Below, piece after piece: positions 10,742 through 63,946 of a stretch of 64,000 bases of DNA. The DNA comes from Hemileia vastatrix (Eukaryota; Basidiomycota; Pucciniomycetes; Pucciniales; Zaghouaniaceae), in assembly GCA_030280995.1 (NCBI GenBank), contig JASXTE010000011.1, positions 2,634,001-2,698,000 of the forward strand, given 5' to 3'. A program made the position numbers and the translations under genes. How positions within the stretch are numbered: the first letter of the stretch is position 1; the number at the start of each line of letters is the position of its first letter. The notes under the pieces were generated by a model. That model worked only from the letters and a program-made list of their open reading frames with translations. It was not told the DNA's origin and searched no databases.

Positions 10742-10979
10742 CACCACAGGAAATTTGGGGGTGTATTGCTAGCAGTTCTCACTCTTTGAACTCCATGGTG
10801 ACCCTAATTTATGCCATGTATCAGACCTTCCATAAATGTCACATTGAGAATAAATTGGAGTCACATATAGTCTGAGCTTTGTCCTTGATTAAGGCCCAGT
10901 GTGCCCTACATTCAGCACAAGTTGATCCAACAAAACTGTAATTTGATCCCTAGTTTAGCAACAATTGAGCACACATTGA

Positions 10980-11420
10980 TCTAACATACACATTGTGCAT
11001 GTGTACTCAAAATACATTATTGATGCATATTGAAAATTCATAAATATTCATTACCAATTATGCATGCATACTCAACATGCAATTTGCATTATGCATAACA
11101 CATATTGCATATTGCATATTAAATATTGAATAATTCATGTTGCATATTGCATAAATCATAATGCATAATGCATAATTGATATTTTATATTGCATATTGCA
11201 TAATACATGTTTCATATTGCATAATGCATAATGCATAATGCATATTACATAATTCATATTGCATATTGTATAATGCATAATGCATAGTGCTTATTGCTTA
11301 TTGCATATTGCATATAGCATGTTGCATAATTCAAATTGTATATTGCATAGTGCATATAGCATATTATATATTGCATATTGCATGTGGATGCATAATGCAT
11401 ATGCAACATGAAATATTCAT
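10980..11420. repeat. Degenerate TGCATA/TTGCATAT low-complexity array
   Basis: About 440 bp of irregular repeats of TGCAT-containing words (ATTGCATA, AATGCATA, GCATATTGCATA), with no fixed period. It lies close to the left end of the large inverted-repeat element. Confidence 0.8.
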
Positions 11421-11893
11421 GCATACAGAATGTGAAAATTAACCTTCTAGTGAGAAAAGTGAAAAATAAGTCATGTGACCTATAATTTTGAAAAGGGAAA
11501 AGAGGAATGATGATTTAAGCTTTTTTTACAATCAACTTAGTTTTCATTATATTTTTAGAAAACATGCCTTGAAAAACTATATTGAAAAAACCCATATCCT
11601 TGGTGAGAAATTCTTCATCAAGTTTAAAAAGCAAATTTTAACTGTTAGCATTATCTATATAACTTCAAATATGGAAGACTCTATGTAGAAAACTAATATC
11701 CTCAGTAGTTTACTTATTTATTGTCCATCTCATTTTTATTCTCTGCATAAAGCTTTTGAGGAAAAAAATATGTAAGAGATATGTAAATTTTATCATGTCT
11801 ATGTGCCCCAAATTCAATGTGCCAAATTGTGTTAAATTATCATTTGTTGTATTTGATTTGTGTAATTTGGGTTGAATGCAAAATGAGATTTCC
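11421..11893. other. Noncoding DNA
   Basis: Only short open frames without recognisable motifs are present. I see no element ends. Confidence 0.5.
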
Positions 11894-12129
11894 AACTGGG
11901 ATGCAAAAAAGTTGGCATGCAATATGAAAATGAATATTGCATAATTAACAGTGGCATTCTAAACTTGCAATTTCACTGATAGATTTTCATACTCAGCTAG
12001 TAGTGTGGGGGAACTGGGATGCAAAAAAGTTGGCATGCAATATGAAATGAATATTGCATATGAAAACAGTGGCAAGCAAAATTTGCAATTCCACTCATGA
12101 ATTTTCATTCTTGACTAATAGTATGGGGG
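11894..12129. repeat. 118-bp tandem duplication
   Basis: Two head-to-tail copies begin AACTGGGATGCAAAAAAGTT at 11894 and 12012. Both continue through GGCATGCAATATGAAA, and both end with a related TAGTGTGGGGG/TAGTATGGGGG block. The first parts are almost identical and the second parts have diverged. Confidence 0.85.
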
Positions 12130-12881
12130 TTGGTAGCAGTGGTCAAGCAACCACTAAAAAATTTGTGCACTCATTTTTGAACAGAGGGTATCATGAGTGT
12201 AGAATTATGGAAGGTGACCATAATTTATTATTATTCCTTAATTTTATTGAATAATTTTGAATATTGAAAATGACTTTTGGTTAGTTAGTATTTGATCTAG
12301 CTGTGCCAGAGCCTTTCTCAATATTGATGTTACTCTTTAAAATTATTGAATATTTTCCATTATGATGATTTGATTCCAGTGCAAGTTAATGTTGGCTCTA
12401 TATTAGGGGGTATCAATCTTGACCAATCCGCAATTAATTTAATTGCAGATAAAAATGCTTATACCCCAATTATCTTCCGCAATTATTTTTTCTAATAATT
12501 GGGTTATTAGACACTTTATGTTTCAATGTTCACCTCTTATCTGACATTTTTCTATTCAATTTATCATAACCACATCTTGGACAACTTTCTGTCATAACCA
12601 CATGTTGCAAAACTTTCTGCCATAACCACATCTTGGACTACTCTCTGGATATGCCTTCTACCTTGCTGCGCACTCCCATTCTCATCCCATCCTGTTCATT
12701 CTATCCACTCAGAATTTCTCCCCATTTCATCTATTTGATTCTGCTCCTTTTCATCTCACTCTCTCATCTGCTTGTTTCTGCTCCTTGTCATCTTGCTATG
12801 TCATTTGCTTTTTTCTGCTCCTTATCATCTTGCTATCTCATCTGCTTGTTTCTGCTCCTTTTCATCTTTAATTATCTTAAC

Positions 12882-13948
12882 ATGCCTTGTCATCATAGAT
12901 CTTCTCAAAGGCAGCCATCACCCAGTTGTTCTTCAAATCCCACTACTCCCTCTTTCCCCCGCTCTGCTGAGAAATCCAAAATTGTTCAACTAAAGAAAGA
13001 TGATCATCTCATTCTTATCAACTGGCTAAAAACTAAATCTACCTATGAGTCATGTTTTGGTACTGAGTATACAACTAAAGTAGGATGGCCCCCCACATCA
13101 AAAGTTAATGGTTATCTTCTAATGGTCAACAAATTACGGAATAAGACTAAGGGAAGGATAGATCTTTTACCAAAACAGATGTCTGAATGCTTCAAGCATT
13201 ATCGAGCCAAGTACAAGAAGGCAAAGACTCTTTCATCTTCTACTGGTTTTGGTATTACTGACCTTGATATCAGTAAGGTCATCAAATCCATAGACAATAA
13301 ACTTGATTCTTTATGTCCTTAATTTAAAGAGATGGATTCTATTTTTGGAGAGCCAGCTGATGTTAATCCTACAAACATGTTGGATGGTGAAGATGCTATC
13401 TCCAAACATGATGTCAAAAGAAATCTTTTTCCTTCTTCTTTTACTCAAGCCTCCCCTCATTTAACTTCCTAAAATCAAGATATCTTTTCAATAGATCCTT
13501 ATGGAAATATTTACCAACCTGATCTAACCCAAGTATGTTTTTTTTCTTTTATTTTACCATTTCTTTTTTTTTACATTTTCTTATTTATAAATAGGCTGAA
13601 GAACTAATGCAGGAGCCACAATCAACTGAGTCTGAAGCCAGCAAAAATGAAGAGGAGGAAAATGTGACCTTTAACAAAAAGCAAAGGGCTTCAAGTAGTC
13701 TGAATTTCCATTCTCAAAGAAGAAGAAAAAGTTATATTTCATCTCAAACCCCTTTTTCTTCTATGGAAGAATTTTTGGAGAAACATGATGCTGGTAAGTG
13801 ACACCAAACCTCTTAATACTTTACTCTGCTTCTCTTCTACTTTTTGTTAATATTTTTTATCACTCTAGAACAAGTGGAAGTTGCTAAAGAGACTCTAAAG
13901 TTTGACTCACCTCAAACCCCCCCTACACCTAACTTATTGAATCAGTAA
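12882..13948 (+). pseudogene. Harbinger A accessory ORF1 protein, broken
   Basis: The likely structure is three exons, 12882-13532, 13595-13793 and 13869-13948, with introns having GTATGT/ATAG and GTAAGT/CTAG borders and matching phases. The product would be about 300 residues. Residues 40-150 form a conserved block (LINWLKTKSTYESCFGTEY, KSKVNGYLLMVNKLR, STGFGITDLD, KLDSLCP). I associate this with uncharacterised rust-fungus proteins linked to Harbinger elements, and a DNA-binding role like that of Myb-type ORF1 proteins would be expected. The C-terminal exons are acidic and then basic. Two in-frame stops, at about 13319 (after LDSLCP) and 13470, break exon 1. The start is uncertain: the frame is open further upstream through a pyrimidine-rich repeat that is probably 5' leader. 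Confidence 0.65.
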
Positions 13949-13985
13949 TGATTTGTTAAGTTAGGTGTAGGGGGGGGTTTGAGGT
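13909..13985. repeat. 27-bp inverted repeat (stem-loop) at the end of ORF1
   Basis: ACCTCAAACCCCCCCTACAC continuing to CTAACTT (13909-13935) is complementary to AAGTTAGGTGTAGGGGGGGG continuing to TTTGAGGT (13958-13985), with one extra G and a loop of about 22 bp. It spans the ORF1 stop codon, so it could act at the 3' end of the transcript. That role is inferred. Confidence 0.85.
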
Positions 13986-14130
13986 AGGTCTGAGGCGGTA
14001 AAGGGGGGGCTTAAGGGGGTCAAGGAAGGGGTAAAGAGGGGGCTTGAGGGGGCCAAGGAGGCGGTAAAGGGGGGTAAAGGGAGGGTATGGAGGAAGACAG
14101 GGAGGGGGGAAAGGGGGATGATGGAGGGTG
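13965..14130. repeat. G-rich purine tract
   Basis: About 165 bp of irregular GGTAAAGGGGGG- and AGGGGGTCAAGG-type units with many runs of four to eight G. It separates the two convergent genes of Harbinger A and has clear G-quadruplex potential on the plus strand. Confidence 0.8.
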
Positions 14131-14281
14131 AAAAAAAGATAGAACAAATAAAACAAAATTAGTCTAACCTTGAAAACCAAAAAAAGCACTTACAGGACAA
14201 AAAAAAAAAGAAAAGGAAAAAAATGAAAAAAAAGAGAAAAAATAAATTATTAGAAAGTAAAAAAATAAAAAAAATAAAAAG

Positions 14282-15110
14282 AATGACTTACCTGGAGAGA
14301 TGAGATGAGAAATAAAGGAATGAAATAGATGAATTGAAAATATTTGATGGATGTTTGAGGAGAGGTTAAAAAGGATATGAGTGATGAATGAAAAAAAACA
14401 CTGACAAAATATGTGATTTCATGTTGAGCTGGTGAAAGAAAACCAATGAGCCATCCAAAAAAAAGAGAAGTGCTTCCCAGCCTCTTAGCACCAAGGCAGG
14501 GGGTCAGCCCAACATGGGGAGGCCTGCCTAGAGGCGTCTGGAACACCCTGAAGCCAGAATACCACCAAAAACCTCCAATAAAGCCCAAAATACTTAGAAA
14601 AATCCTCCGCAACTAAAAAAACCCTTAAAACACATAATTAAGCTATGACAACATTGAGACATAAAATATAGAGCCAAATTAGCTCTAATTAATGGTACTA
14701 AGCACTTAACCCTAAGACTTAAGGTAAGCCTTTAAAACGCAAAAAATAAAATTAAACAGCTATCTTTTAGAAATGAAAAATGAGTAAATGACCCCTTAAA
14801 ACTTGGAATATGAAAAACATCATCAAAACATCAAATATAGAGAAAAACCAGGGCTATCCAATGGTAGTACTCACATACCTTTAGTCTCAATATTCACAGA
14901 ATAAACCTGAAAAACACTCAATTATTCAACCAATGCCAATTAAGACACACCAAAACAATGCCAAACAGAGCAAAAAAGGTGTCTGCCAATTTCAGAAGAC
15001 CACACCATAAATTCAAAAAAAATGAACTTCATCAAACAAAAATACAAAACCAAGTGAATAAAGTACACAAAGTGGAAATGGGGGGAGCACCAAAATAAAA
15101 TTTTAAAAGT
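14282..15110 (-). other. Segment shared by Harbingers A and B, with a 540-bp extra insert in A
   Basis: 14282-14462 and about 15000-15110 match 30103-30290 and 30290-30420 of Harbinger B in order and orientation. Shared blocks are GACTTACCTGGAGAGATGAG, CATGTTGAGCTGGTGAAAG and GTGAATAAAGTACACAAAG. On the minus strand the first block reads CTCTCCAG then GTAAGTC, a good splice donor, so the segment may be the 5' exon and promoter of a minus-strand gene. The 540 bp present only in A (about 14463-15000) contains a GC-richer stretch with loose similarity to the LTR at 17700-17820. I could not prove that it is an insertion. Confidence 0.55.
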
Positions 15111-15153
15111 GTTGTGAAGTGAAATGTTGGAGAGTGATTGGCAATATAATGGA

Positions 15154-16275
15154 TCATATTCCAGTTGATTGAATGTTTTGTGATTCAAGAGAGGGGAGAG
15201 CTGGTGCTGGTTCAGAATCCTCTTCTTCATAAAGATCGTTCCACTCATCCTTTAAATCAGCTAGGATATTGCGGAGTATAATGCAAGTCATGATCCAATG
15301 ATTTGAAGTTTTGATCTCCAATTATTTTTGAAATTGGATTCGGAGCTCCCAAAGACTAGAAAGTTGTCCCTTTAAAATACCTATAGCATGTTCAATCTGT
15401 ACTCTTGATTGGGCAAGGTGATAATTAAATTTAGTTTTGGGGTCATTTTCTAAGGTTGAACCACGGAAAGCAGGTATAATGTACTTCCCACTTGCATATG
15501 CTGAGTCTGCAAGGAGATACTGAGATTTGTCAAGGTATGAGTCTGGGGTTTTAGAAATCCTCATTCTTTGGAAGACGGAAGAGTCATGACATGATCCAGG
15601 GCAGCCACTGTGAAAAGCAATAAATTTTTTATTGACATCACATATAAGTTGAACGGCAATAGAGTATCTAGAAGGAAGATAAAAGGTTAGTTCATGAATG
15701 ATGAGATATATGTGAAGATTTTGAACAAACCTTTTTTTGCAATCAAAATAATGGTTCCCATCATGAGAAGGATTTTGACTCAAAGGTATAGTTGTGCCAT
15801 CAACAAAACCTACACAGCCAGGGAAACCTTTGGCTTGCGTTACTTGAGAGGATTCAAGTTGTTGTTCTGGAGTTGGCCAAGCAAGTGTTTGAGACTTGAG
15901 GGAAAGAATAGCAATCATACAGCGCTTGGTGTATAATATCACCGTACCATATCCTATGCTAAATAGATTATCCAAACGTCTTACAGCAGCACCAATTCCA
16001 TTTGAGCCGAAGCAACATAGTGCAACAGCAAGTTGAATGGCAGGATTACACTGTTTGTTATGGGAATTGTTATGAAAGATAGGATGTTCAGAGATGAGTT
16101 GATAAATTTTGAAGAAAGAATTGTGTGAAGTGCTAATTAGCTGAGTGAAGTTTAGTTGGGAAATGTTGAGAATGGAGCAGAGATCATATTGGGGATCATG
16201 ATAAAGATTTGGCCCCCTGGAAATTAGGTAACACTTTTTGGAAAGAAAACACAAATAGGCTAAGGCATCTTCCAA
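15154..16275 (-). pseudogene. Harbinger-type DDE transposase, nearly intact
   Basis: A DDE transposase of the PIF/Harbinger (HARBI1-like) family. On the minus strand the coding part reads down to 15325 and contains a 63-bp intron at 15668-15730 with GTTTGT donor, CTAAC branch site and CTAG acceptor. Removing it joins DCKKR to YSIAVQ. All three catalytic acids are visible: D in GFVDGTTIPL, D in LLADSAYA and E in RVQIEHAIG. A TAA at 15322-15324 interrupts the C-terminus. Translation beyond it stays in frame to a TGA at 15154 and yields the family-like tail NHWIMTCIILRNIL. No ATG precedes the first recognisable residues, whereas the copy in Harbinger B has one, so the start appears lost. Nuclear location and a role in transposition are expected for the family. 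Confidence 0.85.
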
Positions 16276-16647
16276 ATCAGAGTCAGATTTATAGTAGAGA
16301 ACTAAAATTAAAGTGATAGCATTAATAGTGGAGTGAAGTAGTCATCTAGTAGAGAGGCGCTTCATTCTTGTCAGTAGTATAGGTGTTAGTAGAAGTTTAG
16401 TTGATGAGTGGGAAGTGGGAATTTGCCACCAAATGTGCAGTTGGTGTGTGTAGATAGAAAAAAAACTCAAGTGTTTTCCACCAAAATTAAGTAGCATAGA
16501 GTGAGGAGAGACTTAAGGATGGCATCATAAATTATATGTCGTGTGACTTTCATAAAAATTCATCATGAATGTGATGAGTTTGGGATCAGGAATTAGGAAC
16601 GGAAATTGTGGTATAAGAGGCAGGATAATGCATTATCATGGATTCCT

Positions 16648-16675
16648 TATCCACTAGCCCCGGGGCTAGTGGATA
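16648..16675. repeat. Perfect 28-bp palindrome near the right end of Harbinger A
   Basis: The half-site TATCCACTAGCCCC is followed directly by its exact reverse complement, with no loop. A decayed version, CACTAGCCCCAATACTGGTGG, occurs at about 27340 near the left end of Harbinger B. Confidence 0.9.
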
Positions 16676-16764
16676 TGAATCTTCTACAATTAATAATGTC
16701 TGTTCCCGGGAAAAATAATTTCTGATCCCTAATTGTGGATCCCTGAACATTGATACTCCCTATT

Positions 16765-17455
16765 ATGACCATTGAAAAACAGAATTACCTGATCAAAATT
16801 ATTTACAGTCAGGAAAAAAATGTAGTGATTGTATCTGTTCACTTTCATTATAAGTGAAGGTTGGTTTAATTGTCATATTGACCTTATGACTGAAAATTGT
16901 GGTTCACAAATGTTCAAGTCTCTCACTCTTTGAATAATATTAAGAGTTGATAATAGGCATGGATAGTGCTCTAAAGTGAATATTGGCTTGTGGGATTTTG
17001 TTATCACTGAAAATACTTTACATATTTTTTAATCTTGTAATGATCAGTTAACCAATGGTGTGAACGCCAGTAAAAATATGGGTTGTGAATTAAAATCATA
17101 TTTAAATTTGATGAATGGATAATTGATCAACTCAGTAGCTCATGACATCTAGTAAAATATGTCAAAAACTATAGATGGTGCTGATTATTTTTCTTTCACA
17201 AATTGATAGTAGGGAAATGATGAACCAATGTTTTGGAGATGAACATGCTGGTATTATCAAGTCTTGTGGGTCAGAGATAGCATTTTGGGGTGATTTGTGT
17301 AATAAATTATATTTACAAAGTCTGTGTAATGCCCTATGATTGATATATTTATACGTGATCCATCAGGAAAAGGTATAAATAATGCAGATTTAAGGTTAAC
17401 TCTTAAAACCATTTTTGATGGAATAAAACAACTGATATAAAATAGGCCTAGACGT
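16765..17455. other. Noncoding sequence of the large inverted-repeat element
   Basis: I see nothing coding. It resumes after the gag-only retrotransposon at 22719, as shown by the ACGT duplication. Confidence 0.55.
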
Positions 17456-18215
17456 TGTGGTGATCCAAACCTGGGTAGGCCTTTGGAGTGCATATTTGGG
17501 GGTATTTGGTATGTAGGGTGTTATTGGGGTTATGGTGTTTTTAGTGGATTTTTTCATCTTTAGGTGATAGTTAGTAGTGTTTATGGAGGCTTAAGCAAGG
17601 TTCACTTATTATGTCTCAGCTTAATGTCCTTTATTTTCTCTTCATTTTGGTATTCCTATGGGTGGTTACCTTTTTTATTAGTGAAGTTATGGGTTTTTAA
17701 GGTTTTTATGGGTTGTATTGGTGTTTTGGGCCTAGAAGCGGCCTGCCCACCCCTAAGAGGAGGCCTGTCTTGAAGAGGGGTGACCGCCTGGGCGCTGGGG
17801 AAGCGCTAAAATGCACTTTTATGCATGAAAAAGGCTGGGAAAGCTGGATTTTGGGTGGGGAATTGGTAAGGGTGGTCTGTGCACTGGCTGTATGATGCGT
17901 GTGTGGGAAGATTTTTAGGGAAGAATCTTATCTCTTTACTCATCACCTCTCTGTTCCTCACAGTCTCATTGGCTGTTTTTTTGTTGGAATATATTACTGT
18001 TCATTTCAACTTTTTCTGGCAGTCTGTCTGGGACTATTATCCTTCACTTTTAAAGAGGTCAAGAGTGTTTAATTAGAGGGTCTAGCAAACAGATCTCCAA
18101 TTTTCTGCAAAAGGTAAATCTCACTTTTTTTCTAAAAGGACAGGGGATTTTCTCTCATGGTTTTCTCCAACTCCCTTGGTCAAGGCCTATAGCTAGTACT
18201 ATAGGATTGTCTACA
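17456..18215 (+). repeat. 5' LTR of the gag-only element
   Basis: TG...CA borders and a 760-bp length. A GC-rich middle (GGCCTAGAAGCGGCCTGCCC, then GGGGTGACCGCCTGGGCGC) stands out against the AT-rich surroundings and could be the promoter core. Confidence 0.9.
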
Positions 18216-18219
18216 TTTC

Positions 18220-18236
18220 TGGCACCCAACGTGGAG
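18220..18236 (+). other. Primer-binding site of the gag-only element
   Basis: TGGCACCCAACGTGGAG starts four bases after the LTR. It begins TGG, the complement of the CCA tail, so it matches a tRNA 3' end. This is the canonical mode, unlike the anticodon-arm sites of the copia elements. I do not assign the tRNA. Confidence 0.75.
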
Positions 18237-18454
18237 TACAAATTTGTTGGATTTTTGGAATCTCTGTTGATCTAGGCTTCTCTCTTTGGTGGATCTCCTT
18301 TGGTGGATTTTGAATTTGGTGCTATATCTCTTTGTGGTTAGTCTAGAGGTCTTCTTTTCTGTTGGATTTGGTCCCTCCTAGGTCTTTAAGGCTATTGGGG
18401 GGGACTTTGGCTATCTTTGGTGGAGATTGGAGGCTGTAACTTGTATATGCTAGG

Positions 18455-19838
18455 ATGGTTAGGATTCAGTCTTGGGATGGTTCAAAGTTTTTGGGGGAGG
18501 ATGCAAAGGGGTTTTTGGCTAGGTTTGAGGTTGCTGCTGAGATTGATGGGGCCTCACTGTTGGACATGGTTAGGCAAGTAATCTTTTTTCATTGGTAATA
18601 GGGAGGTGGAGAAGGAAGTTTCTGGTATGGCAGGATATAGGAGTCAGGACTGGGGAAAGTTGAAGATTGAAATGGTTAAAAGGTGGCCTGCTACTTTCTC
18701 AATGGTGGATCTTCATGGGATTGCTAGGAAGTGGGAATTGAAAGGTGGTGTAACTTCTCTTTCTCAGTATGGGGAATTTATGGAGGAGTTTTGGGAGGCA
18801 CTGGATTATCTGGTATATAATGATATATTACCACATGAAGATGGGGCCAAGTATGTATTTTGGAGTGCCATGGGTAGGGATGTAAAGGTGGAGGCTATGG
18901 AGATTCTTTTTAAGGCTGACTTGATGAAGACTCTTCCAAATGGGGAAAATAGGATTCCTGCTATGGCTCTTTTAAAGGAGGTTATTTTGGTATATTTGGA
19001 TGGTGTGAAGGATAGGGATGTGTAATCTGGAGAGGAAATACTGTTGGACAGAGAGGTTCAGAAGGCTGTGGTGGAAATTTAAGCTTCTGGGGAGGCATTG
19101 GAGCCATCAATTTCAGAAGATGATGATTCTGATGAAGTTTTTGAAGCTTATTTTTCTTTTCCAGAGGATACCATGGAAAATCAGGAATGTGTTTCACTGG
19201 ATGTTTTGGAGATGTATGCACTAGAGGATAAGTGTATTTCCTTAAGTTTGGATGAATTACGTGGGAAGGAGGATTTTTCTGGTCATGATGAAGGATTTTG
19301 GAATATTGAGAAGAAATCTGTGGTGGATGAATGGTTGTTGAGGGATGATTATTTTTATTTCTCAAGTTCAGATAGTGGCTTATTGGAGGAGAATGTATCA
19401 GTTGAATTTTTGGATGGACAGAAAGATTCTGTCTAGGATCTTTTTCTTATAGAGGAAGATTATTTTCAAGTGGTTCCCTCAAGATCAGAAGGTCTCTTCT
19501 TGGAGGAGGATTTTTATTTTTATGTTATGCATGTTATTCTGGAGAATTTTGCAGATTCTAAGCAAGATTCCTATAGGGAAGAGGAAAATTGTGATGTTTT
19601 AGATGTCACTGGTATGGAGGTTGATTTTAAAGATGTGGTAGAGGTTCAAGATGTTTCACAGGGTGGAGAATTCATTGATTCTGGTGATGTGAACTATGGT
19701 AGACTCAGTGTATGGAGGAAGATGGAAGATTTATTTGGAGGTCTGATGTTGGGGTATCAGCATTGGAAGAGGAGCATAGGGGGTTCAAGCCCTAGGGGCA
19801 AACTTATTGGTTTCAACCTGGGGTTTTCAACAATCTGA
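18455..19838 (+). pseudogene. Gypsy-like gag, broken
   Basis: The first part (18455-18598) encodes a gag N-terminus (SWDGSKFLGEDAKGFLARF, AAEIDGASLLDMVRQVIFF). It then shifts frame to 18606, where VSGMAGYRSQDWGKLKIEMV and GGVTSLSQYGEFMEEFW continue the Ty3/gypsy-type capsid domain. The same frame runs to 19838 with stops at 19023, about 19080 and 19434. The last 230 residues are strongly acidic and unlike ordinary gag. I see no zinc knuckle or protease. A structural role in packaging element RNA is expected for the family. Confidence 0.7.
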
Positions 19839-22718: not shown

Positions 22719-22784
22719 ACGTCTGGTGCAAATTTTTTTGTCTAGGCATTAATCTTTATCAAACTAGTTATTACTAGGAATATT

Positions 22785-24428
22785 ATGAGTCAAATCATTT
22801 CTCACCACATTAAATATTGTGTGGACTGTTTAACAATATACTTGATTAATACTTGAATTCTAGAATATTGGCTTCCAGAAAGTACTTGACTGATAGTCAG
22901 ATGCACATTTGTGCAAGTCGGTGACATAAAGCATAAAGAAAAATGTAACAGGTCAAATTTATACATTAATAGGTTTTTGAACCTTTGAAAAGCATGGTTA
23001 TAAATTTTTTCCCACCTTTATTTTTGCTAAAGTATGTATTGATTAATAAATCAATCTGTTACTTAGGAAAAATTATTTAAAATGCAAATGTGAAGAATGT
23101 TGAAGCATTATTATTTAAAACTCCTATAATTTTCCTTAATCATTTCATTAAATGGCCTAAGTGAAGAAAATTCAGATATCACAGTTTCCACATATGTATG
23201 GGATAATATTTATCTTCTAATAATAAGATTATAATGAACTTGTCCTTACCAGCTTATTATCTATGATTAGGGTATTGTTGAATTTTGTGTGCCACATGCA
23301 ACTGGCAGAATGCTATACTTTGATCATAATAATAAAAGCATATTTGGCAGTTAGATATGTTTATTATATTTTAAGAAAACATTACTGTTTTATTTTCCAA
23401 AATTTAATGGCTTATTGCTATGTTTTTAATAAAATATGCTTTCCATTATATTATTTTTTTTAGGTAGTATTATTTTGTTTTACAAATAAATTGGCAAGAA
23501 TATTTTACCTTGAATAATGATAATTTAATAAAATGCATTTTTTAAATATAGGATTAATATCTTAAATAGAATTAAAAAACAGTGGTATCTGGCTTTACAT
23601 GGCACCAAGTGTCCTTCTGAGCATCGCCAGATGCTGAAAAAGATACTTTTATAAAGAATATCAGTAAGGGTATAAGTCTGTGAATGTTGGGTAGTTGTAA
23701 TTATTAAAGTGTCCTTCTCAGAAATGGACCATTAATAAGGTGGACACTTTAGGTTCAGTGAAATAGGATGGAAACGGTTTTGCTGATTTCCATAGTATTT
23801 GATTACTAGCTAACCATAAAAGTGAAGGTATTACAGACTTGGTCAAAAGTGTCCTTCTGAATGATGGTCTGATGCTCAGAAGGAAACTTTTATAATGCAC
23901 ATCATCTAGGTATTATATGTATACATATCTATTTTTTATGCATTATTAAAGTGTTCTTCTGAGTGTTGGACTGTCCTTCAGAAGGACACTTTTGACCAAG
24001 TCTGTATCACCTTCATTTTAATGTTTAACCAATGTTCCAGTACCAAGACTATTAAAAGAGCTCATGTCATTTACAGTACTTAAAGTGTTCACCTAAACAA
24101 TGGTTCATCACAGAGAAAGACAGTTTTATAAACTTTAAAGATAAAATGGTTGTATATAATACCTATATGATAAGCATTATAAAAGTGTCCTTCTGAGCAT
24201 CGGACCGTTGTTGAGAAGGACACTTCTGACCAAGTGTGTGACACCTTCACTTTAATAGTTAGCCAACAGTCAAATACCATGGACATTAGCAAAACTCTTT
24301 CCATCTACTTAAACATCACTTGAAGTGTCCTCCTAAAAAATGGTCTGGTTCTGAGAAGGACACTTTTAAATTTCAAATTATCTAGGTATTATATATATAC
24401 CTTAGTATCTTTTATAAATTATAAAAAT
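22785..24428. repeat. Hairpin satellite, higher-order unit 1
   Basis: About 1.64 kb. The first half begins near TCTCACCACATTAAATATTG, with CAGAAAGTACTTGACTGATA and AACCTTTGAAAAGCA later in it. The second half (about 23585-24380) is a string of inverted-repeat subunits of the form GTGTCCTTCTGAG, a roughly 15-base loop, then CTCAGAAGGACAC. These are spaced alternately about 100 and 135 bp, which makes a repeat of about 240 bp. A clear example is 24181-24230. Confidence 0.85.
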
Positions 24429-26084
24429 TTATTGTGCACACAATCAAATATTGTGTGGACTGGTTAACAAGATATATTTTTAAACCTATAACTCTTGATT
24501 TTAAGTTTCCAGAAAGTATTTGACTGATGATCAGAAACATGTTTGTGCCATTGGGTGATATAAAGCATCAACAAGGCTGTAAAAGATTCAAATTAAAAAT
24601 TAATAGATTTTAAAACCTTTGAAAAGCAAAAGTATTAATTTTTTTCCACCTAAATTTGTGCTAGATTAGTCATTGAGTAATTAATAAATGTTTTACTTAA
24701 GAAATAAAATATTTAAAATACAAATGTGAAGAATTTTGAAGAATCATTATTTTACAACTCCTAATATTTTCCTAAACTTTAAACATGTTAATAGCCTTAG
24801 TGAAGAAAATTCCGATAACACAGTTTTGACATATGTATAAGATAATATTTTATTTTTCTTTATATTAATATTATGATCTTTTTCTTACCAGTTTATTATC
24901 TATTATTGGGGTATTGTTGAATCTTTTGTGCCAAATTCATCTGTAAGAATGTTATACTTTGATCATAATAATAAAAGGATATTTGGAAGCTCAATGTATT
25001 TATTATATGTTAAGAAAATATTACTCCTTTCTTTTCATATATTATATGGCTTAATGCTCTTTTTTCATAATAATTGTGGGTTTCAATATTCTTTCCATTA
25101 TATTATAATTTTTTAAGGTAGTATTATTTTGTGTACCAAAGGAATTGGACTGATTTTTTTACCTTGAATAATAATAAATCAATAAAATGCATTTTTCATA
25201 TATAAGATTAATTTTTTAAATACAATTAAAAAAACAGTGGTATCTGGATTCACATGGCACCAAGTACCTATCTGAGAATTGTCTGATACTGAGGAAGACA
25301 CTTTTATAAAGTATATCAGTAAGTGTATAAGTCTTTAGAGCATGGGTAGCTCAAATTATCAAATTGTTCTTTTCAGAAATGTACCATTTCTCAGGGGGAC
25401 ACTAAAGGTTCTGTGAAATAGGATGGAAAGTGTTTTGATGATGTCAATGGTATTTGATTGTTGGCTAACCATAAAAGTGAAGGTGTTACAGACTGAATCA
25501 AAAGTGTCCTTCTGAACAGCAGTCCGACGCTCAGAAAGACACGTTTATAATGCATATTATCTAGGCGTTAAATGTATACATGTCTGTCTTTTATGCATTA
25601 TAAAAGTCTCCTTCTGAGAATTATACAGTCCTTCAGAATGACACTTTTGACCAAGTCTGTAACACCTTAAATTTAATGTTTAACTAATGTTCATGTACCA
25701 AGGCTATAAAATAAGTTCTTGTCATTTAAAATACTTAATGTGTTCACCTGAGCATTTGTCCATCACTAAGAAAGAAAAATTTATAAAATTTAATGATAAA
25801 ATGTTTATATATAATACCTATGTGATATTCAATAAAAAAGTGTCCTTCTGCGCATCGGACCATCCTTCAGAAGGACGCTTTTGACCAAGTCTGAAACAAC
25901 TTCACTTTAATGATAAGCCAACAATCAAATACCATGGTCATTAGAAAAACTCTTACCATCCTATTGCAAAGAACCCAAAGTTTCCACCTGAGAAATGGTC
26001 CATTGCTATGAAGGACAATTTAAAAAGGCATATCATCTTGGTATATAATGTATATATCTGTATCTTTTATGCATTATAAAAAAC
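24429..26084. repeat. Hairpin satellite, higher-order unit 2
   Basis: About 1.65 kb with the same order of landmarks as unit 1: AAATATTGTGTGGACTGGTT at 24450, CAGAAAGTATTTGACTGATG, then CAGTGGTATCTGG at 25235, followed by the hairpin string to about 26030. Similarity is visible by eye along its whole length but with many substitutions. Confidence 0.85.
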
Positions 26085-27559
26085 CATTTTACACCGGATA
26101 AATATTGTTTGGACTGGTTAATAAGATTCTTGTTTAAACCCTTCAATTTTTAATTATTGGGTTGCAGAAATTACTTGACTGATGGTAAGAAAATTATTTG
26201 TGCCAGTGTGTGGCATGCAGCATCAACAAGTTCATGAAAGGTCCATTTATTACATTAATAGGTTTTTGAACCTTTGAAAAGCAAGGGAAATATTATTTTT
26301 TCCTCACCTATATTTCTTCTTGAGTATGTATAGATTAATCAACCAATCTGTTTCTTGGGAAGAATTATTTTAAATAGAAATGTGATGAAATTTGGAGCAT
26401 TATTATTTTATTAATTTTTTGATTTTCTTAAATCATATTCATTTTAATGGCCTCAGTGATAAAAATTCAGATATCACACTTTTCACAAATGTATGGGATA
26501 ATATTTTTCTTTTCATAGTAATATAATGAGCTTTTCCTTACCAGCTTATTATCTATAATTGGGGTGTTGTTAAATCTTGTGGGCTAAATGCATCTGGCAA
26601 AATGCTATACTTTGATCATTAAAATAAAAGGATATTTGGCAGTTCAATACATCTATTTTATGTTAAGAAAATATTATTCTTGGTTTTTATATATTCCCAT
26701 GGCTTAATGCTTTGTTTTTAACAATAATTGTGTGTTGAAATATTTTTTCAATTATATTATTATTTTTGAGTTAGTATTTTTTTACATCAAAAGGTATTGG
26801 CCAGAATGTTCTACCTTGAAGAATGATAATTCAATAAAATGCATTTTTCAAATATGAGATTGATTTTTTAAACACAATTAAAAAAACAGTTGTATCTGGC
26901 TCTACATGACACCCAGTGTCCCTCTGAGAATTGTCTGGTGTTGAGGAAGACACTTTTATAAAGCCTATCAGTATGGGTATAAGTCTATGAAAGTTGGGTA
27001 ATTGTAATTATTAAAGTTTCATTCTCAAAAATTGACTATTGCTCAGGTGAACACTTTTGGTTCTGTGCAATGGGATGGAAAAGGTTTTGCTAATTTCTAT
27101 GGTATCTGAGTGTTGGCTAACCATAAATGTAAAGGAGTTACAGACTTGGTCAAAAGTGTACTTCTGAAGGACGTTCCAACACTCAGAGGGAAATTTTTAT
27201 AATGTATATCATTTAGGTATTATATGTATACATATCTGTCTTTTATGCATTAGGGGGTTTCAGTTCTGGCAAATCCGCACTTACAAATCTGCACTTAAAT
27301 TTGACCAAATCCGCACTTAAATAAGTGGGGATTTCCAAAACACACTAGCCCCAATACTGGTGGATTTCAAAATGAAATAAGTCACTTATTTCACTCAAAT
27401 CCGCACTTTCTCAACCAAAAGTGCTGATTTCACCATCAAGTCCCATTTCACTGATTTTTCAGAATCATCCCATTCATATGCAGCACTCCGCAGCATAACA
27501 CTTCATAACTCAAAACATCGTACATCACTTACATCTTCATATCATATCATATAAGAGTT

Positions 27560-28185
27560 ATGCCTTCCTCACTTTCAAATTGTGATAAATTACATAAAGC
27601 AATGACTTTCATGGCTCTTGAACTGCTCTTGGACTCTGATTGCGATTCTGATTCTGATCTAGAAGAAGATTTTGTCTTTTTATCAAAAATGGCCACGAAA
27701 AGTTACCTTCTTCCCAGAAAGCCTCAAGTACTTCATACCCCCAAGTACACCATCCAAACACTTCTTAAAATATCTACACCCAGTTTTAGACAGCTGTTCA
27801 GGACTTCTCAGGAATGTTTGCTTAAATTGCTTGAGCTTATTCAGGATCATCCCATACTTCACAATAATTCTCAAAAAGAACAACGACATCCTTCAATTCA
27901 ATTGGCCATCACACTATGTCGTTTGGGTTCAAATGGTAATGGAGACGCTTTAAAACGTTTAGAAAATGTCTTTGATTTAGGGTATGGTTCAGTTAACACT
28001 TATACCAAACAATGTATCACTGCCATCAACTCCTTGTAATCTCAACTTCTCACCTGGCCAACAAAAGAAGAGCGACTTGAATCATCTCAGGTTATGCAAG
28101 CAGAGGGCTTCCCAGGATGTATTGGTTTTGTTGATGGTACTGCTATTCCTTTGAGCCAGAAACTTGCTCAAGGTGGAAACAATTA
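27560..28185 (+). pseudogene. Harbinger transposase, truncated after the first catalytic Asp
   Basis: The frame from the ATG at 27560 is homologous to the transposase of Harbinger A (HPILHNNSQKEQRHPSIQLA, LCRLGSNGNGDALKRLENVF, GFPGCIGFVDGTAIPLSQ). A TAA at 28037 replaces the Lys found in Harbinger A. The homology ends at GGNNYFH near 28185, exactly where the exon before the intron ends in the other copy. The second Asp and the catalytic Glu are absent, so it cannot transpose by itself. It also shows the N-terminal start (ATG, then a D/S-rich stretch) that Harbinger A has lost. Confidence 0.85.
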
Positions 28186-28192
28186 CTTTCAC

Positions 28193-28425
28193 ATTCTCGT
28201 CAAAAATTTTCACCAAAATATTTACAAGTCAAAAAAATTCTATATCTGTTTTAAAAAATTGGCAATACTCTCCCCTGCATTTTATTGAAGCAAGGGGTGG
28301 ATATCACCAAAATTTTTCTAAGTCATAAATTTCACATGTCAGATTTAAAAATTTGGCAATACCCCCCCCCCTGCATTTTATTGAAGTAAGTGGTGGAAGT
28401 CATCTAAATTTAATATAATTACGTA
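28193..28425. repeat. Imperfect 120-bp tandem repeat
   Basis: Two copies share CAAAAATTTTC/CTAAATTT, TTTAAAAAATTGGCAATAC and CCCCTGCATTTTATTGAAG. They lie where the transposase homology stops. Confidence 0.6.
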
Positions 28426-28696
28426 AATTATTAAATAAATATCTAATATATATCACTTTCCCTAGTTTAAAGTAATGACAATCCCTCAAGCCAAAATGCA
28501 GATCAAATCTAGAAACAAAAGTTTGGGACTTTCCACAGGTATAGGCTAGAGGAACCCCATGAAACAAATAAATGTTATCATGATTACCATTTATACAACA
28601 CAAGGTCGTGGGCCCATTACTTTAGTTGAGGAAATTGATACATAAAAAATATTTATTAAAAATTTACAAAAAAATATAAAATTTTCAATGACAACT

Positions 28697-29317
28697 CTAA
28701 TCCCCATACTTTTTTGATCTAAATAAAGTTTTTTTAAATCGATTAACTTTACCTTCCTTCATTACCTTATTGATTCTTTGAATCAACTTATGACTGATTT
28801 GAAATGAGCAACCAAAATTTCTTAAATCTTGACAGGATTCCAAACCAGGAGGAGCTTTGGTCGTTTGATGATTATCCTTAGAAGAATTCCAAATAGTTTT
28901 GATGATACCATTTCCCAAACCAAAATCAATGATGCACCGGTGGTCTGGAAAATATAAACCATGTCATTTGATTTTAGCTGGAGATGGTATTGGTTGGCCA
29001 GTAATCGGTTTGATATATGAGAATATACCAAAAGTAAGAAAATTGGTGTCCTTGGTATCGGTGTGAATTTTATTGTGAAATCCAGAATGAGTGATAATAA
29101 CATTAGAAAATAAAAGATATTCGTGGCTGATATCTTCCCATTCGGAGCCACACCAATTCGGTTTTCCAACTTTGGTTGCAAGCTCATGATTTTTTTCAAA
29201 TGCTTTATTACAGTGCTTTTTGAGTGGAAGAGCAAGAAAAGAGTTAAAGGAAGGTAGAGTGTCCCATAAGCGAAAATCTTCATCTTTTTGAGCTTTAGTG
29301 ATATTCTTGAGCAACAA
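28697..29317 (-). pseudogene. TET/JBP-like 2-oxoglutarate/Fe(II) dioxygenase remnant
   Basis: One minus-strand frame of 207 codons, broken only by a TGA at 28964-28966, resembles the Tet-like oxygenase domain that is expanded in rust fungi. Matching landmarks are LFSNVIITHSGFHNKIHTDT (HxD iron ligands H and D), then FGIFSYIKPITGQPI, HGLYFPDHRCIIDFGLGNGI, NHQTT (distal His) and LRNFGCSFQIS (Arg expected to hold 2-oxoglutarate). All four active-site positions seem kept. The stop falls where a Gly codon (GGA to TGA) is expected. An upstream open stretch at about 29380-29580 (FPTNRFEFDSVVYEI, EVEPFSKF) may be an earlier exon. TET/JBP enzymes oxidise modified pyrimidines in DNA; a role for this copy is unproven. 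Confidence 0.7.
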
Positions 29318-30102
29318 ATATATGCCTATATAATTGAAATGCCTAGATAATAATCATATAAGAGTTTCAGAATCCTTATCCTCTAAATATGCAATATAAA
29401 AATGTGAAATAAGACAAGTGAAATTTAGAAAAAGGCTCAACTTCAAAGGTCAAAATCTCATAAACCACTGAATCAAATTCAAATCTGTTTGTGGGAAATG
29501 AAAGGTAGCCTTCAGGAGAATCTTCAGTAAAAAGAACATTAGATTTGAATAAACCTAACCCTAATTCCGAGTCTGATTTTCAAAATTTTACAAAAACTTG
29601 AAAAGTGGTAATGAAGATGAGATCAAAAGGAGTTTTATAAGTTCACTGTTATCCAGATAAGAGTCATACATATATTTAAGTATGAAGTTTTCATAAAAGG
29701 AATGAGATATCATATAGGCATGAAAAAATGGAGATGAAACTTACCTTGATTGAAAAGTAGGAAAAATAGAGTGAGAAAGATTGATGTTGGAATTGTGGGG
29801 AAATTGAATATGGAGTAAGTTAAATGCATAAAGAATGTGCAATGTATGTGTTTCAATGAAATGGAGCCAAAAAAAAGTGAAATAAGGGAAAGGGGGGATA
29901 ATGACCATGCCAAGGAGGGATGAAGAGTAGGGTGATGGAGCTAAAAAAGAAAGTAAAGAGGGAGAGAAAAAAAAGGTTAATTATACCATTGAAATCCAAA
30001 ATAACCACTTACAAAAAAATTTAGATAAAAAAAATAAAATAAACAGAAAAAAACAAAAAAATTATAATTAGTAATCAAAAAATCAAAAAAAAAGAATAAA
30101 GT

Positions 30103-30420
30103 GACTTACCTGGAGAGATGAGATGACAAAATGAATGAAACCAAATTGTTTGAGGGATGTTGGAGGAGAATAAGAAAAGGATATGAGGGATGAATGAAAA
30201 AAAAAATCACTGACAAAATATGCAATTTCAGAAAATATGCGATTTCATGTTGAGCTGGTGAAAGAAAACCAATGAGCCATCCAAAAAAAAAAATTTCACC
30301 GTAAATTCCAAAAAAAATGAATATGCAACAAACCAAATACCAACCCAAGTGAATGAAGTACACAAAGAGGACATTTGGAGAGTACAAAATGGTATGGGAA
30401 AGAAAGGGATGATGTGGCCA
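30103..30420 (-). promoter_or_regulatory. Probable 5' region of the oxygenase-like gene, shared with Harbinger A
   Basis: The block matches 14282-15110 of Harbinger A. On the minus strand it contains a good splice donor (CTCATCTCTCCAG then GTAAGTC) at about 30105-30123, pointing towards the pseudogene at 28697-29317. A promoter plus untranslated first exon is the simplest reading. No promoter motif is certain. Confidence 0.4.
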
Positions 30421-30727
30421 ACATGTGGTTTTGAAAAAAAAAATCATGAAAAAAGTGCTGATTTGAGGTCAGAACTGACACCCATAGAAAAAAGATTAAG
30501 AAGTAGAAGAAATAAGTAAAAAAGAATGTAAAAATGCCTGGTCAAAATATTGAAAATTTCAGGAAGGGGTGTGTGCCGAGGATTGATGGGTAGGTAGCGA
30601 GGAAGGTCAGTGTGTCACATGTGACAGGGATGGGGTAAGAAAGGAAGGGATGTTTTGTGGCCAAAATGTGGTTGTGAAAAAAACGGGAAAAAAGTGCTGA
30701 TTTGAGGTCATAACTGACACCCTTTTT
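30421..30727. repeat. Internal duplication of the Harbinger B subterminal region
   Basis: 30421-30487 and 30661-30727 share GTGGTTnTGAAAAAAA, AAAAAGTGCTGATTTGAGGT and ACTGACACCC with a 240-bp offset, so part of the terminal repeat is present three times near this end. Confidence 0.7.
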
Positions 30728-31286
30728 TGAAATAAGTGACTTTTTTGCAAAATTTAAGTGCTGATTTGGTTTAAATCCGCACTTAAGTTAAGTGCGGATT
30801 TGCCAGAACTGACACCCCCTATTATAGTTATTTCCTTCAGAAGAACACTTTTGACCAAGTTTTTAGAACCTTCAATTTAATGATTAACCAATTTTTAAGT
30901 ACCAAGGCTATTTAAAGAGCTCATTTCTTTTAAAGTACCTAAACTGTCCTCCTTATAAATGGTCCATCACTGGGAAAGACAATTTTATAAATCTCAAAGA
31001 AAAAATATTTATATATAATACATAGATGATATGCATCACAAAGGTGTCATTCTCAGATACAGACCATCCTTCAAGTGTATAATTTTGAGCAAGTATGGTG
31101 CACCTTCAACTTTTTGTTTAAAAAATAATCAAATACCAGTGCCTTTAAAAAAATTTCATGCCATATACTTACACATTTACTATAGTGCCCTCCTGAGAAA
31201 AAGTCTGTTGCTCAGAAGGACACTTTAAAAATTCATGTCATCATAGTATTATATGTATACCTATCATCTTTCATGCATTATTATCA

Positions 31287-33590
31287 TTAATTTCTCACCA
31301 CATCAAGTATTGTGTGTACTGGTTAAAAAGATACTTTTTAAACACTTTAATTCTAGATTATTGGCTTCCAGAAAGCACTTGACTGATAGTCAGAAACATG
31401 TTTGTGCAACTGGGTGACATAAAGCATAAAAAAGGCTGTGACAGGTCCAATTCATACATTAATAAGTTTTTTAACCTTTGAAAAGCAAGGGTATTAATTT
31501 TATTTTACCACCTATATTTGTGCTAGAGTATGTATTGATTAATCATCCAATCTTTTACTTGGGAAAGTTTATTTAAATTATAAATGTGAATAAATTTTGA
31601 GCATTATTATTTTACAACTCCATAGATTTTCCTAAATAATATTCATGTTAATGGCCTAAGTGAAGAAAATTCAGATATCACAGTTTCCACATATGTATGG
31701 GAAAATATTTTTCTTTTCATAACAATAATATAATAAGGTTCTCTTACCAGTTTATTATCTATGATTAGGGTATTGTTGAATTTTGTTAGCCAAATGCATC
31801 TGGAAGAATTCTATACTTTTATTATAATAATAAAAGGATGTTTGGCAGTTCAACATATTCATTATATTTTTAGAAATTGTAATTCTAACTTTTTATACAT
31901 TCTTACGGCCTAATGCTATGCTTTCAATAATAATTGTGTGTGTGCAATATTCTTTCCATTATATTATTAATTTTTGAGGTAGTATTATTTTCTGTTCCAA
32001 ATGAATTGGACAGATTTTTTTAGCTTAAATAATAATAATTTAATAAAATTCATTTTTAAAATATAGGATCAATATTTTAAACAAAATTAAAAAGAAACTG
32101 TGTTATCTGGACTTAAATGGCACCAAGTGTATTTCTGAGCATTGGCTGATGCTGAGGAAGACACTTTTATAAAGCATATCAGTAAGCTTATAAGTCTATG
32201 AAACATGGGTTTTTAGGACTATAAGAGTTTCCTTCTCAGCAACACTCAATTGCTCAGGTGGACACTTTAGGTTCTGTGCAATAAGATGGGAAGGGTTTTG
32301 CTAATTTCAATGATATTTTTTTTTCTAACCATAAAAGTGAAGGATTTAGAGACTTGTTTAAAAGTGTCCTTCTGAAGGATTGTCCAAAACTCAGAAGGAC
32401 ACTTTTATAGCACATATCATCTAGGTATTATATTTATAAAATTAATTCTTTTCTTCATTATAAAAATGTCCTTCTGAGTGTCAGACTGTCCTTCAGAAGG
32501 ACACATTTGGCCAAGTCTTTAAAACCTTCAATTTAATGTTGAACCAATGTTCAATTATCACCACTATTAAAACAGCTCATATCATTTACAGTACCTAAAG
32601 TTTTCACCTGAACAACAGTCCATCACTGAGAAAGACACTTTTACACTTTTTGATACATATAATGGTTATATATAATACCTAGATGATATGCATAAGAAAA
32701 GTGTTAATCTCAGAAGCAGATCATACTTCAAGTGTATAATTTTTTACAAGAATGGTGCAACTTTAGTTTTATGTTTAAACAATAATCAAATACCGTGGCC
32801 TTTAAAAAACCTCATTCCATCTACTTACACATTTCCTAGAGTGTCTCCATGAATAATTTTCCATTGCTGATAAGGACACTTTTATAACTAATATCAACTA
32901 GGTATCATATGTATACATATGTATCTTTTATGCAATATAAAAGTGTCCTTTTCAGTTGCAGACCGTTGTTCAGGAGGACACTTTAGGCAATGTGTAAATA
33001 GATGGAATGAAGTTTTACAAAGGCCATGGTGTTTGTTTATTTTTTAAATATAAAAGTGAAGGTGCATTAGAATTGTTCAAAATAGTTCACTTACAGGATA
33101 GTCTGTTGCTGAGAAGGGCAATTATTTAGTACCTATCGTATAGGTATTATAAATAATCAGTGCTACTTTTGTGCTTTATAAAAGTGTTGTTCTCAGTGTT
33201 GAACAATATTCCAAGTGGAAAATTTAGATACAGTGTATGATCTGAGCACTTTTACTTGTCTTGTTACTCAAAAGTTGACTAACCCTAAAGGTGAAGGTGT
33301 TACAGACTTTTCCAAATGTTTCCTTCTGAAGGAAAGTCCATTTCTGAGAAAGAAATTTTTATAATTCATATCTTATAGGTATTTTATGTATACCTACCTA
33401 TCTTTTATGCATTGAAAAGGTGTCCTTCAGAAGGACACTTTTGACCAAGTCTGTGATACCATTAATTTCATGGTTAGAATATATTGAAGTACCATGGCTA
33501 GTAAAAGAGATCATGTCATACGCAGTACATAAAGTTTTCACTTGAAGGGAACTTTTATAATTGATACAAGATATGTTGCACAGATATACA
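31287..33590. repeat. Hairpin satellite, higher-order unit 4, extended
   Basis: The first half repeats the landmarks (TTTCTCACCACATCAAGTAT at 31291, TTCCAGAAAGCACTTGACTG, AACCTTTGAAAAGCAAGG). The hairpin string begins near 32085 and runs to about 33560, nearly twice as long as in the other units. The extra hairpins are more diverged. Confidence 0.8.
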
Positions 33591-34104
33591 TCCAGACCAA
33601 CATTTATTCTAAAATTATCCTTCTTACCAATGAAAATATTTTTTGCAGTTAACGTTTTGCCATTATTAGATAGATCTCATGAGTTCTTTATATTCAACTT
33701 ATCACTGAATTCAAGTCATCCTTTTATTGGGAGCCCCTAAATTTTACATGATGTATCATCATTGAATTTGTTTGTTACTAATGAAGGATTTTCTATAATG
33801 AATACTACACGCAATTTAACTATATATGTAAATTAGAAGCTTGAATAATATGACACATTAGACTCAGTGCTTAATTTTTGAAAAACCTGGGTTAAAATTA
33901 TCTTCAATGTAACTTAATTGCTCTTATCAAGATGACTTCAAGTAAGGGTAAATCTGCTTTCAATTATTGACCAATTTTTTTTCAATTTTTTTAATTAGAT
34001 TTTCCAAAAGTTTACCAACCTACTCCCAACCATTTTCTGACCATTTCCTAACCATTTCAAAGGGGGAGAATAGCTAGCAGTTCACCCCCAAATTTCCTGT
34101 GGTG
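33591..34104. other. Right subterminal region of the large inverted-repeat element
   Basis: Noncoding. It contains several AACCATTT/GACCATTTCC-like repeats at 34030-34070, just before the terminal inverted repeat. Confidence 0.6.
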
Positions 34105-34107
34105 ATT

Positions 34108-63940: not shown

Positions 63941-63946
63941 AAGTAG

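What the first reader, a model, noticed from the sequence alone, without database searches (positions are those of the whole stretch)
10742..34104. A 23.4-kb inverted-repeat element sits precisely inside a copia gag codon sequence
The two halves of one gag gene, 23 kb apart, join in frame when the intervening DNA and one ATT are removed, and the join matches an uninterrupted relative at 39.0 kb. The inserted DNA starts and ends with the same inverted 22-bp sequence (similar to 39 bp). So a very large unit was mobilised with a 3-bp target duplication, yet I find no transposase of its own. It may be a giant non-autonomous cut-and-paste element, possibly CACTA-like, whose body is a satellite.
Basis: partly seen in the sequence, partly recalled or inferred. 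Interest (0 to 1): 0.9.

Follow-up and report, generated by a model that had tools for sequence, protein, structure and literature searches.

The report
Rust-fungus jumping element with satellite body
This is a large, gene-free cut-and-paste jumping element, apparently of a rust fungus, whose body is mostly a tandemly repeated satellite; its ends recur thousands of times in the genome, and a related longer family carries a transposase, a chromatin-remodeller-like gene and an array of similar palindromes.

Summary
10742-34104 is bounded by a 22-bp perfect terminal inverted repeat (about 50 bp at 88%) and an ATT duplication, inside a gag that is continuous in a relative at 37.9-39.5 kb. The window's own genome (747.6 Mb) holds 3158 matches to that end within two mismatches (reversed control 0). 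A complete sibling (15,325 bp, TSD TAT) has no ORF over 106 aa and the same plan: left end, about 7 satellite units of ~1.65 kb, right end. It also shows that the window copy is inflated by two PIF/Harbinger-like elements (4.36, 3.57 kb) and an LTR retrotransposon (5.26 kb); the element proper is 10.2 kb. CAC...GTG ends and 3-bp duplications fit CACTA/EnSpm. A related family (1140 ends within one mismatch; 3 of 22 bases different) has a tnp2 transposase and SNF2-type ATPase (3 of 3 copies examined) and, in 2 of 3, an array of 46-bp palindromes with the arms (AAAAGTGTCC...GGACACTTTT) and 102/137-bp spacing found in the window's satellite. New variant of a known kind.

The parts
10739..10741 (.). 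left copy of the 3-bp target duplication (ATT)
   Evidence: alignment to uninterrupted relative 37906-39543
10742..10790 (+). left terminal inverted repeat, CACCACAGGAAATTTGGGGGTG, with near-palindrome GTATTGCTAGCAGTTC (10763-10778)
   Evidence: 22 bp perfect and 49 bp at 87.8% to 34104-34056; 3158 genome-wide matches within 2 mismatches, control 0
10791..12405 (+). left-type subterminal region of the element: CATATTG-like 7/14-bp array (about 11057-11400) and two 118-bp repeats (11894-12129)
   Evidence: shared at 85-91% over about 1.5 kb with five other ends and with the C26 sibling
12406..16760 (.). nested PIF/Harbinger (PHISTA-like) element 1, ends GGGGGTATCAAT.../...CTCCC; not part of the outer element
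   Evidence: ends match the TIR of nested element 2 at 26 of 33 and 21 of 33 (the latter alone is at chance level); empty site in C26 sibling
12570..13322 (+). ORF of nested element 1 (250 aa, no Pfam hit; accessory protein by position, a guess)
   Evidence: region matched at 84% inside the nested stretch of the C631 copy
15325..16341 (-). transposase ORF of nested element 1 (DDE_Tnp_4)
   Evidence: PF13359 E 2.2e-18; best relative in Puccinia coronata, 49%
16761..17455 (+). outer element, continuation of left region
   Evidence: contiguous with 12405 and with 22719 in C26 sibling
17456..22718 (.). nested LTR retrotransposon (LTRs 17456-18215 and 21970-22718, 90.5% identical; ACGT on both sides)
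   Evidence: absent from C26 sibling
22792..27252 (+). satellite body of the outer element, ~1655-bp units with 46/47-bp palindromes AAAAGTGTCC...GGACACTTTT
   Evidence: same body in C26 sibling
27253..30819 (.). nested PIF/Harbinger (PHISTA-like) element 2, TIR GGGGGTGTCAGTTCTGGC; partial transposase 27509-28285 (+) and TET/JBP-like ORF 28967-29353 (-)
   Evidence: empty site in C26 sibling
30833..33546 (+). satellite body continued (7175 bp in all, about 4.3 units)
33547..34055 (+). right-type subterminal region; 11-bp repeats GAAATGGTTAG/GAAATGGTCAG/AAAATGGTTGG (reverse strand, read by eye) next to the TIR
   Evidence: sequence; right end incl. satellite shared at 80-90% over about 1.5 kb with four other ends
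34056..34104 (-). right terminal inverted repeat
34105..34107 (.). right copy of the target duplication (ATT)
63791..64000 (+). start of a 261-bp MITE of a related family (continues 51 bp past the window), ends CACCACACAATATGGGGGG / CACTACACAATATAGGGGG, palindrome GACTTTCTAGAAAGTC, ATA on both sides

Best explanation
A non-autonomous CACTA/EnSpm transposon. Shown: terminal repeats; 3-bp duplications in four of four examples where both ends were read (one is the related 261-bp MITE); thousands of like ends; a gene-free satellite body in a full sibling; and a related tnp2-bearing family with the same end design and, in two of three copies examined, a palindrome array of the same geometry. Inferred: a tnp2 transposase made by the longer family (or a closer, unseen one) binds the terminal and palindromic repeats of gene-free copies and moves them by cut and paste; the palindromes, whose arms and 102/137-bp spacing are kept while the DNA between them gives no BLAST match, act as arrayed protein-binding sites, as subterminal repeats do in plant Spm (recalled); unequal exchange in the array sets the unit number and hence the element length.
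For: CAC...GTG termini and ATT/TAT/AAT/ATA duplications; rust EnSpm families are described with 5'-CAC..GTG-3' and 3-bp TSDs (PMC12730594, section 3.1 read). 3158 ends, control 0. Sibling C26: 15,325 bp, no ORF over 106 aa, about 7 satellite units against about 4.3 in the window. 24 frames of the nested-free core gave no Pfam family at E<=0.1 but one SprT-like hit at 0.094, below its cut-off. Of 30 exact ends fetched (of 53 listed; two are the window's own), 9 have palindromes inside and 0 of 30 in the outer 1.5 kb. Partner: three copies whose similarity starts at the TIR (within 3 bp), each with SNF2 and tnp2 regions (Transposase_21 E 4.1e-15 in the C338 copy). Palindromes: 28 in C338, 27 in C26 sibling, 17 in the window insert, 5 in C631, 2 in L044-L045, 0 in the other 40.6 kb of the window, 0 at the other Plavaka locus, 0 in 20 shuffles; spacings 100-105 and 134-140 recur in C338, C26 sibling and window. 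Of 18 transposase places of that subfamily on contigs covered by the listing, 10 have an exact partner end upstream within 25 kb in the right orientation, 6 at 6.71-6.82 kb; random 0.3% (contig lengths partly approximate).
Against: The partner's TIR differs at 3 of 22 bases; its left end looks (by eye) like the right-type, not the left-type, end of the window element; its right end was not found in 26.7 kb. BLAST finds no match at all at E<=0.01 between the partner's array and the C26 satellite. One of the three partner copies (C34) has no palindrome in the 19 kb fetched, and the C26 partner copy has two of its 27 outside its left end, so the palindromes are not strictly confined to one element. 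12 of the 30 sampled ends have neither a CATATTG array (6 or more) nor palindromes within 1.5 kb. Copies differ by several to over 20%, so present activity is not shown.
Confidence: 0.85

Rival explanations
1. The unit is a giant PIF/Harbinger element moved by the DDE_Tnp_4 transposase inside it (a 3-bp TSD would fit).
For: DDE_Tnp_4 ORF 15325-16341 with relatives in rusts and a second partial copy at 27509-28285.
Against: Both lie inside their own GGGGG...CCC ends and are absent from the C26 sibling, which is an empty site for both; outer ends are CAC...GTG.
Confidence: 0.04
2. The satellite is a host satellite that the element captured, rather than an expanded form of the family's own palindrome array.
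For: The window-type satellite and the partner's array give no BLAST match; two palindromes lie just outside one partner copy; captured satDNA in a CACTA element is reported in Chenopodium (PMC8978399, passages seen).
Against: Same 10-bp palindrome arms, 46/47-bp length and 102/137-bp spacing in the partner element; 0 of 30 ends have a palindrome on the outer side.
Confidence: 0.2
3. The gene-free family is moved by a different, closer CACTA member with a CACCACAGGAAAT[C/T]TGGGGGTG end that was not seen, not by the SNF2-bearing family.
For: 35 of the 47 one-mismatch ends listed are the CTG variant, 2 bases from the partner's end; the partner shows no CATATTG-type end in what was read.
Against: No such member was found, but only one family model was searched and its count is a lower bound.
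Confidence: 0.35
4. Assembly error joins unrelated gag halves through repetitive DNA.
For: Left and right gag halves differ in identity to the relative (86% and 93%).
Against: Similarity runs up to the junction on both sides, TIR and duplication sit exactly at the join, and the same ends recur with duplications elsewhere.
Confidence: 0.02

Closest known systems
CACTA/EnSpm elements of rust fungi (Kojima 2025, PMC12730594; abstract, sections 3.1 and 3.4, legends and term passages seen)
   Same: 5'-CAC..GTG-3' ends, 3-bp TSDs, Plavaka/EnSpm-like transposase (in the partner)
   Different: the families described there encode proteins, some a TET/JBP dioxygenase; here the element is gene-free with a satellite body, and the partner carries an SNF2-type ATPase ('SNF2' and 'satellite' occur 0 times in that text)
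CACTA Jozin of Chenopodium with captured satDNA (PMC8978399; passages seen)
   Same: CACTA element with a tandem satellite array, near its 3' end
   Different: monomer of about 171 bp in an element with a transposase domain; here ~1.65-kb units form about 70% of a gene-free element and share palindromes with the partner
Tetris foldback transposon of Drosophila virilis (PMC4079207; search listing only)
   Same: DNA transposon linked to a satellite through internal tandem repeats
   Different: a foldback element (long inverted repeats, recalled); here TIRs are about 50 bp
Enlarged En/Spm of Chondrus crispus, 16-20 kb (cited in PMC6431247; passage seen)
   Same: size of a CACTA element
   Different: those have 4-5 ORFs; this one has none

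Membership tests
CACTA/EnSpm (CMC) | termini 5'-CAC...GTG-3' | tested here: met
CACTA/EnSpm (CMC) | 3-bp target site duplication | tested here: met
   ATT (window), TAT (C26), AAT (C631); related MITE ATA; 4 of 4 with both ends read
CACTA/EnSpm (CMC) | subterminal repeat arrays | tested here: met
   11-bp repeats at right end (by eye), CATATTG array at left, palindrome array
CACTA/EnSpm (CMC) | tnp2 (Transposase_21/Plavaka) transposase in the element or an end-sharing partner | tested here: inconclusive
   none in the element; present in a related family whose end differs at 3 of 22 bases
CACTA/EnSpm (CMC) | transposase acts on these ends | not testable with these tools
   needs a binding or excision assay
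PIF/Harbinger (PHIS) | own DDE_Tnp_4 transposase | tested here: not met
   belongs to nested elements absent from the sibling
PIF/Harbinger (PHIS) | GG...CC type termini (recalled) | tested here: not met
   outer ends are CACCACAGG
PHISTA (nested elements 1 and 2) | Harbinger-type transposase, TET/JBP gene (TET+ families), TA duplication | tested here: inconclusive
   element 2 has PF20515 and a partial transposase; element 1 has the transposase and no TET among its three ORFs scanned; TA flanks both TIRs, but the empty sites suggest a longer duplication
Foldback elements | long inverted repeats forming much of the element (recalled) | tested here: not met
   TIR about 50 bp

The most novel reading that the evidence does not exclude
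A transposable satellite: selection has kept an array of 46-bp palindromes at 102/137-bp spacing as the cis-acting handle of this CACTA family, and gene-free copies that amplified that array into kilobase-unit satellites spread through the genome as parasites of a partner that encodes both a tnp2 transposase and an SNF2 remodeller working on such arrays.
Probability: 0.35. Interest if true: 0.75.

Novelty: new variant of a known kind. Interest (0 to 1): 0.55.

Why it matters
It gives a route by which kilobase-unit satellite arrays are dispersed as insertions, in a genome with more than 3000 such ends, and shows a transposon family carrying an SNF2-type ATPase. The palindrome spacing shared across arrays that otherwise give no BLAST match is a concrete, testable cis-element for how large gene-free CACTA copies are recognised.

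Tried and rejected
Harbinger ownership of the outer unit: rejected by the sibling. Chance: rejected. A hidden transposase in the core: 24 frames, none. Exact TIR in viral contigs and genome contigs (prokaryotes): 0 each. Copia ORF search to name the species: best named relative is Puccinia striiformis at 36%, so the genus is not settled. The other Plavaka-type group: the one locus read (C2, L060-L061) has no such TIR within 6 mismatches and no palindromes, and 0 of its 4 places on listed contigs has a partner end upstream: a different family. Right end of the partner: not found in 26.7 kb at up to 7 mismatches. Genome-wide counts of the palindrome, of SNF2, of the tnp2 protein and of PF02992 were asked and never answered. 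Paper searches in which I saw no SNF2-bearing CACTA and no rust satellite-bodied EnSpm: (openly licensed papers only; listings, mostly not read; one search listed 10 of 74).
Full report
Observation. The gag of one copia copy (10166-10741 and 34106-35173) is split by 23,363 bp relative to a second copy on the reverse strand (37906-39543). The join is gap-free apart from ATT on both sides, and the insert starts and ends with CACCACAGGAAATTTGGGGGTG in inverted orientation, about 50 bp at 88%. The frame runs on across the join, though stops lie in both halves and the relative's gag is in two ORFs.

What the 23.4 kb contains. Two stretches looked like a transposase at first: DDE_Tnp_4 at 15325-16341 (E 2.2e-18) and a half copy at 27509-28285 (49% to the first); 28967-29353 matches the TET-like 2OG oxygenase family PF20515, E 1.2e-15. 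These sit in two nested PIF/Harbinger-like elements at 12406-16760 and 27253-30819, which resemble the TET-bearing PHISTA lineage described for rust fungi (PMC12730594, sections 3.1 and 3.4). The right end of the first matches the second's TIR only at chance level (21 of 33); its limits rest on the empty site in a sibling. An LTR retrotransposon lies at 17456-22718, LTRs 90.5% alike. Without these 13.2 kb the unit is 10.2 kb, 7.2 kb of it satellite. The 24 reading frames of that core gave no Pfam family at E<=0.1 except SprT-like at 0.094, below its cut-off. Stop-to-stop ORFs of 60 aa or more: 20 against 14.1 on average in 50 shuffles, maximum 23.

Host. The closest named relatives of the nested transposase are Puccinia and Austropuccinia proteins (49% and 43% at best), so I take the genome for a rust fungus or close kin; species unnamed. 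The held assembly has 747.6 Mb in 791 contigs, the window being C34:2634001-2698000.

Other copies. The 22-bp end occurs 1585 + 1573 times within two mismatches, 0 + 0 for the reversed control. The listing shows 53 exact ends, of which 30 were fetched (two are the window's own): 9 carry the CATATTG array (6 or more repeats), 9 others carry palindromes, 12 neither within 1.5 kb; on the outer side palindromes occur in 0 of 30. Five ends match the window's left end at 85-91%, and four its right end with the satellite at 80-90%, over about 1.5 kb; others match over shorter stretches or less well, down to 72%. The first 250 bp are on average 95.9% identical among eight left-type and 93.0% among eight right-type ends that I chose.

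A complete sibling. C26:7212275-7227599 is 15,325 bp with TAT on both sides, no ORF over 106 aa, and the same order: left region, about 7 satellite units, right end. It is contiguous where the window copy has each of its three nested elements. A second pair, C631:39493876-39509104, is 15,229 bp with AAT on both sides; it holds a 7-kb nested stretch (2155-9120 in the fetched piece) that matches both the transposase and the TET regions of the window's nested elements, and only a short palindrome array (5). A third left end (C34:22549309) was followed for 17 kb and no exact TGTGGTG end was seen. At 63791 a 261-bp MITE with CACCACA/CACTACA ends, a GACTTTCTAGAAAGTC palindrome and ATA on both sides shows a miniature relative.

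A transposase-bearing relative. A Plavaka-model search gave 30 places in two groups. One of the larger group, C338:10078712, lies 6.76 kb inside an end CACCACGGGAAATCAGGGGGTGAACTGCTAGCAGTTC. Between them are two adjacent ORFs of an SNF2-type ATPase (PF00176, E 1.6e-25 and 1.9e-18) and an ORF without a family; the transposase ORF is Transposase_21 (E 4.1e-15). Two more copies (C34:30411560, C26:55565566) begin their similarity at that end, 96-97% alike, with SNF2 and transposase in the same order. The C26 copy also has the later ORFs and the array; the C34 copy departs after 7.8 kb and shows no palindrome in the 19 kb fetched. In the C26 copy 2 of 27 palindromes lie outside its left end. The end occurs 563 + 577 times within one mismatch, control 0; this set may overlap the 3158. 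Ten of 18 transposase places of this group on listed contigs have an exact end upstream within 25 kb, six at 6.71-6.82 kb; random 0.3%; 0 of 4 in the other group; 8 of the 30 places lie on contigs that the truncated listing did not reach. The right end was not found in 26.7 kb.

The link. Downstream of the transposase the relative has a tandem array of about 239 bp period built on 46-bp palindromes AAAAGTGTCC...GGACACTTTT, spaced alternately 102 and about 137 bp (28 found). The satellite of the gene-free copies has palindromes of 46/47 bp with the same arms and, among others, spacings of 100-102 and 134-140 bp (17 in the window insert, 27 in the C26 sibling), with 0 in the remaining 40.6 kb of the window, 0 at the other Plavaka locus and 0 in 20 shuffles. 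The two arrays give no BLAST match at E<=0.01. That shared geometry is the best evidence that the satellite is the family's own array, enlarged.

Reading. The element is a non-autonomous CACTA/EnSpm transposon with a satellite body. Ends, duplications, copies, sibling and absence of recognisable genes are shown. That the SNF2/tnp2 family moves it, and that the palindromes are binding sites, is inferred. A closer partner may exist, since the ends differ at 3 of 22 bases and the left-type region has no counterpart in what was read of the relative. The unit count differs (about 7 in C26, 4.3 here), consistent with unequal exchange, not proof of it. Satellite arrays within a CACTA element are reported in Chenopodium (PMC8978399, passages), hence a new variant of a known kind.

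Noticed in passing
12404-12411, 16754-16765, 27250-27257, 30813-30824; L039/L040: Comparison with the empty sites in the C26 sibling suggests that the two PHISTA-like insertions duplicated more than TA (ATTA/TATTA, or TTA with an asymmetric end), unlike the TA duplication reported for PHISTA (by eye).
   Followed up: partly
35187-39543 with 9510-10741 and 34106-35173: The second copia copy (reverse strand, LTR-like end near 35187) abuts the break of the interrupted copy at 35173, so the split copia seems to have been hit by its own relative too; identity between the copies is patchy (86% left, 93% right).
   Followed up: no
939-1625, 5810-6496 and 1609-5676: A copia-type element with 99.1% identical direct repeats around an open 1356-aa ORF: apparently a young insertion.
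   Followed up: no
C579:21546989-21622660 and C579:32868352-32947114: Two pairs of exact ends in facing orientation 75.7 and 78.8 kb apart: either chance neighbours or very large copies; not fetched.
   Followed up: no
L041/L042 (C631 copy), joined positions 2155-9120: A 7-kb nested stretch matching both the TET and the transposase regions: looks like a fuller version of the two PHISTA-like elements of the window.
   Followed up: partly
L058:4808-5761 (-), L059:939-2176: Further ORFs of the SNF2/tnp2 element conserved between copies; the first has no Pfam family, the others were not scanned.
   Followed up: partly
10763-10778, 34068-34083, 63812-63827: A palindrome just inside the ends varies in a partly paired way among ends (GAACTGCTAGCAGTTC, GAACTTCTAGAAGTTC, GACTTTCTAGAAAGTC); ends with palindrome arrays keep only 4-7 of 8 pairs.
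   Followed up: partly
L065:100 and 237 (before the left end at 767): Two 46-bp palindromes 137 bp apart lie just outside the left end of one SNF2/tnp2 copy, perhaps a neighbouring element.
   Followed up: no
56231-57315 (-): ORFs that look like a Tc1/mariner-type transposase (recalled from reading the sequence; no search run).
   Followed up: no
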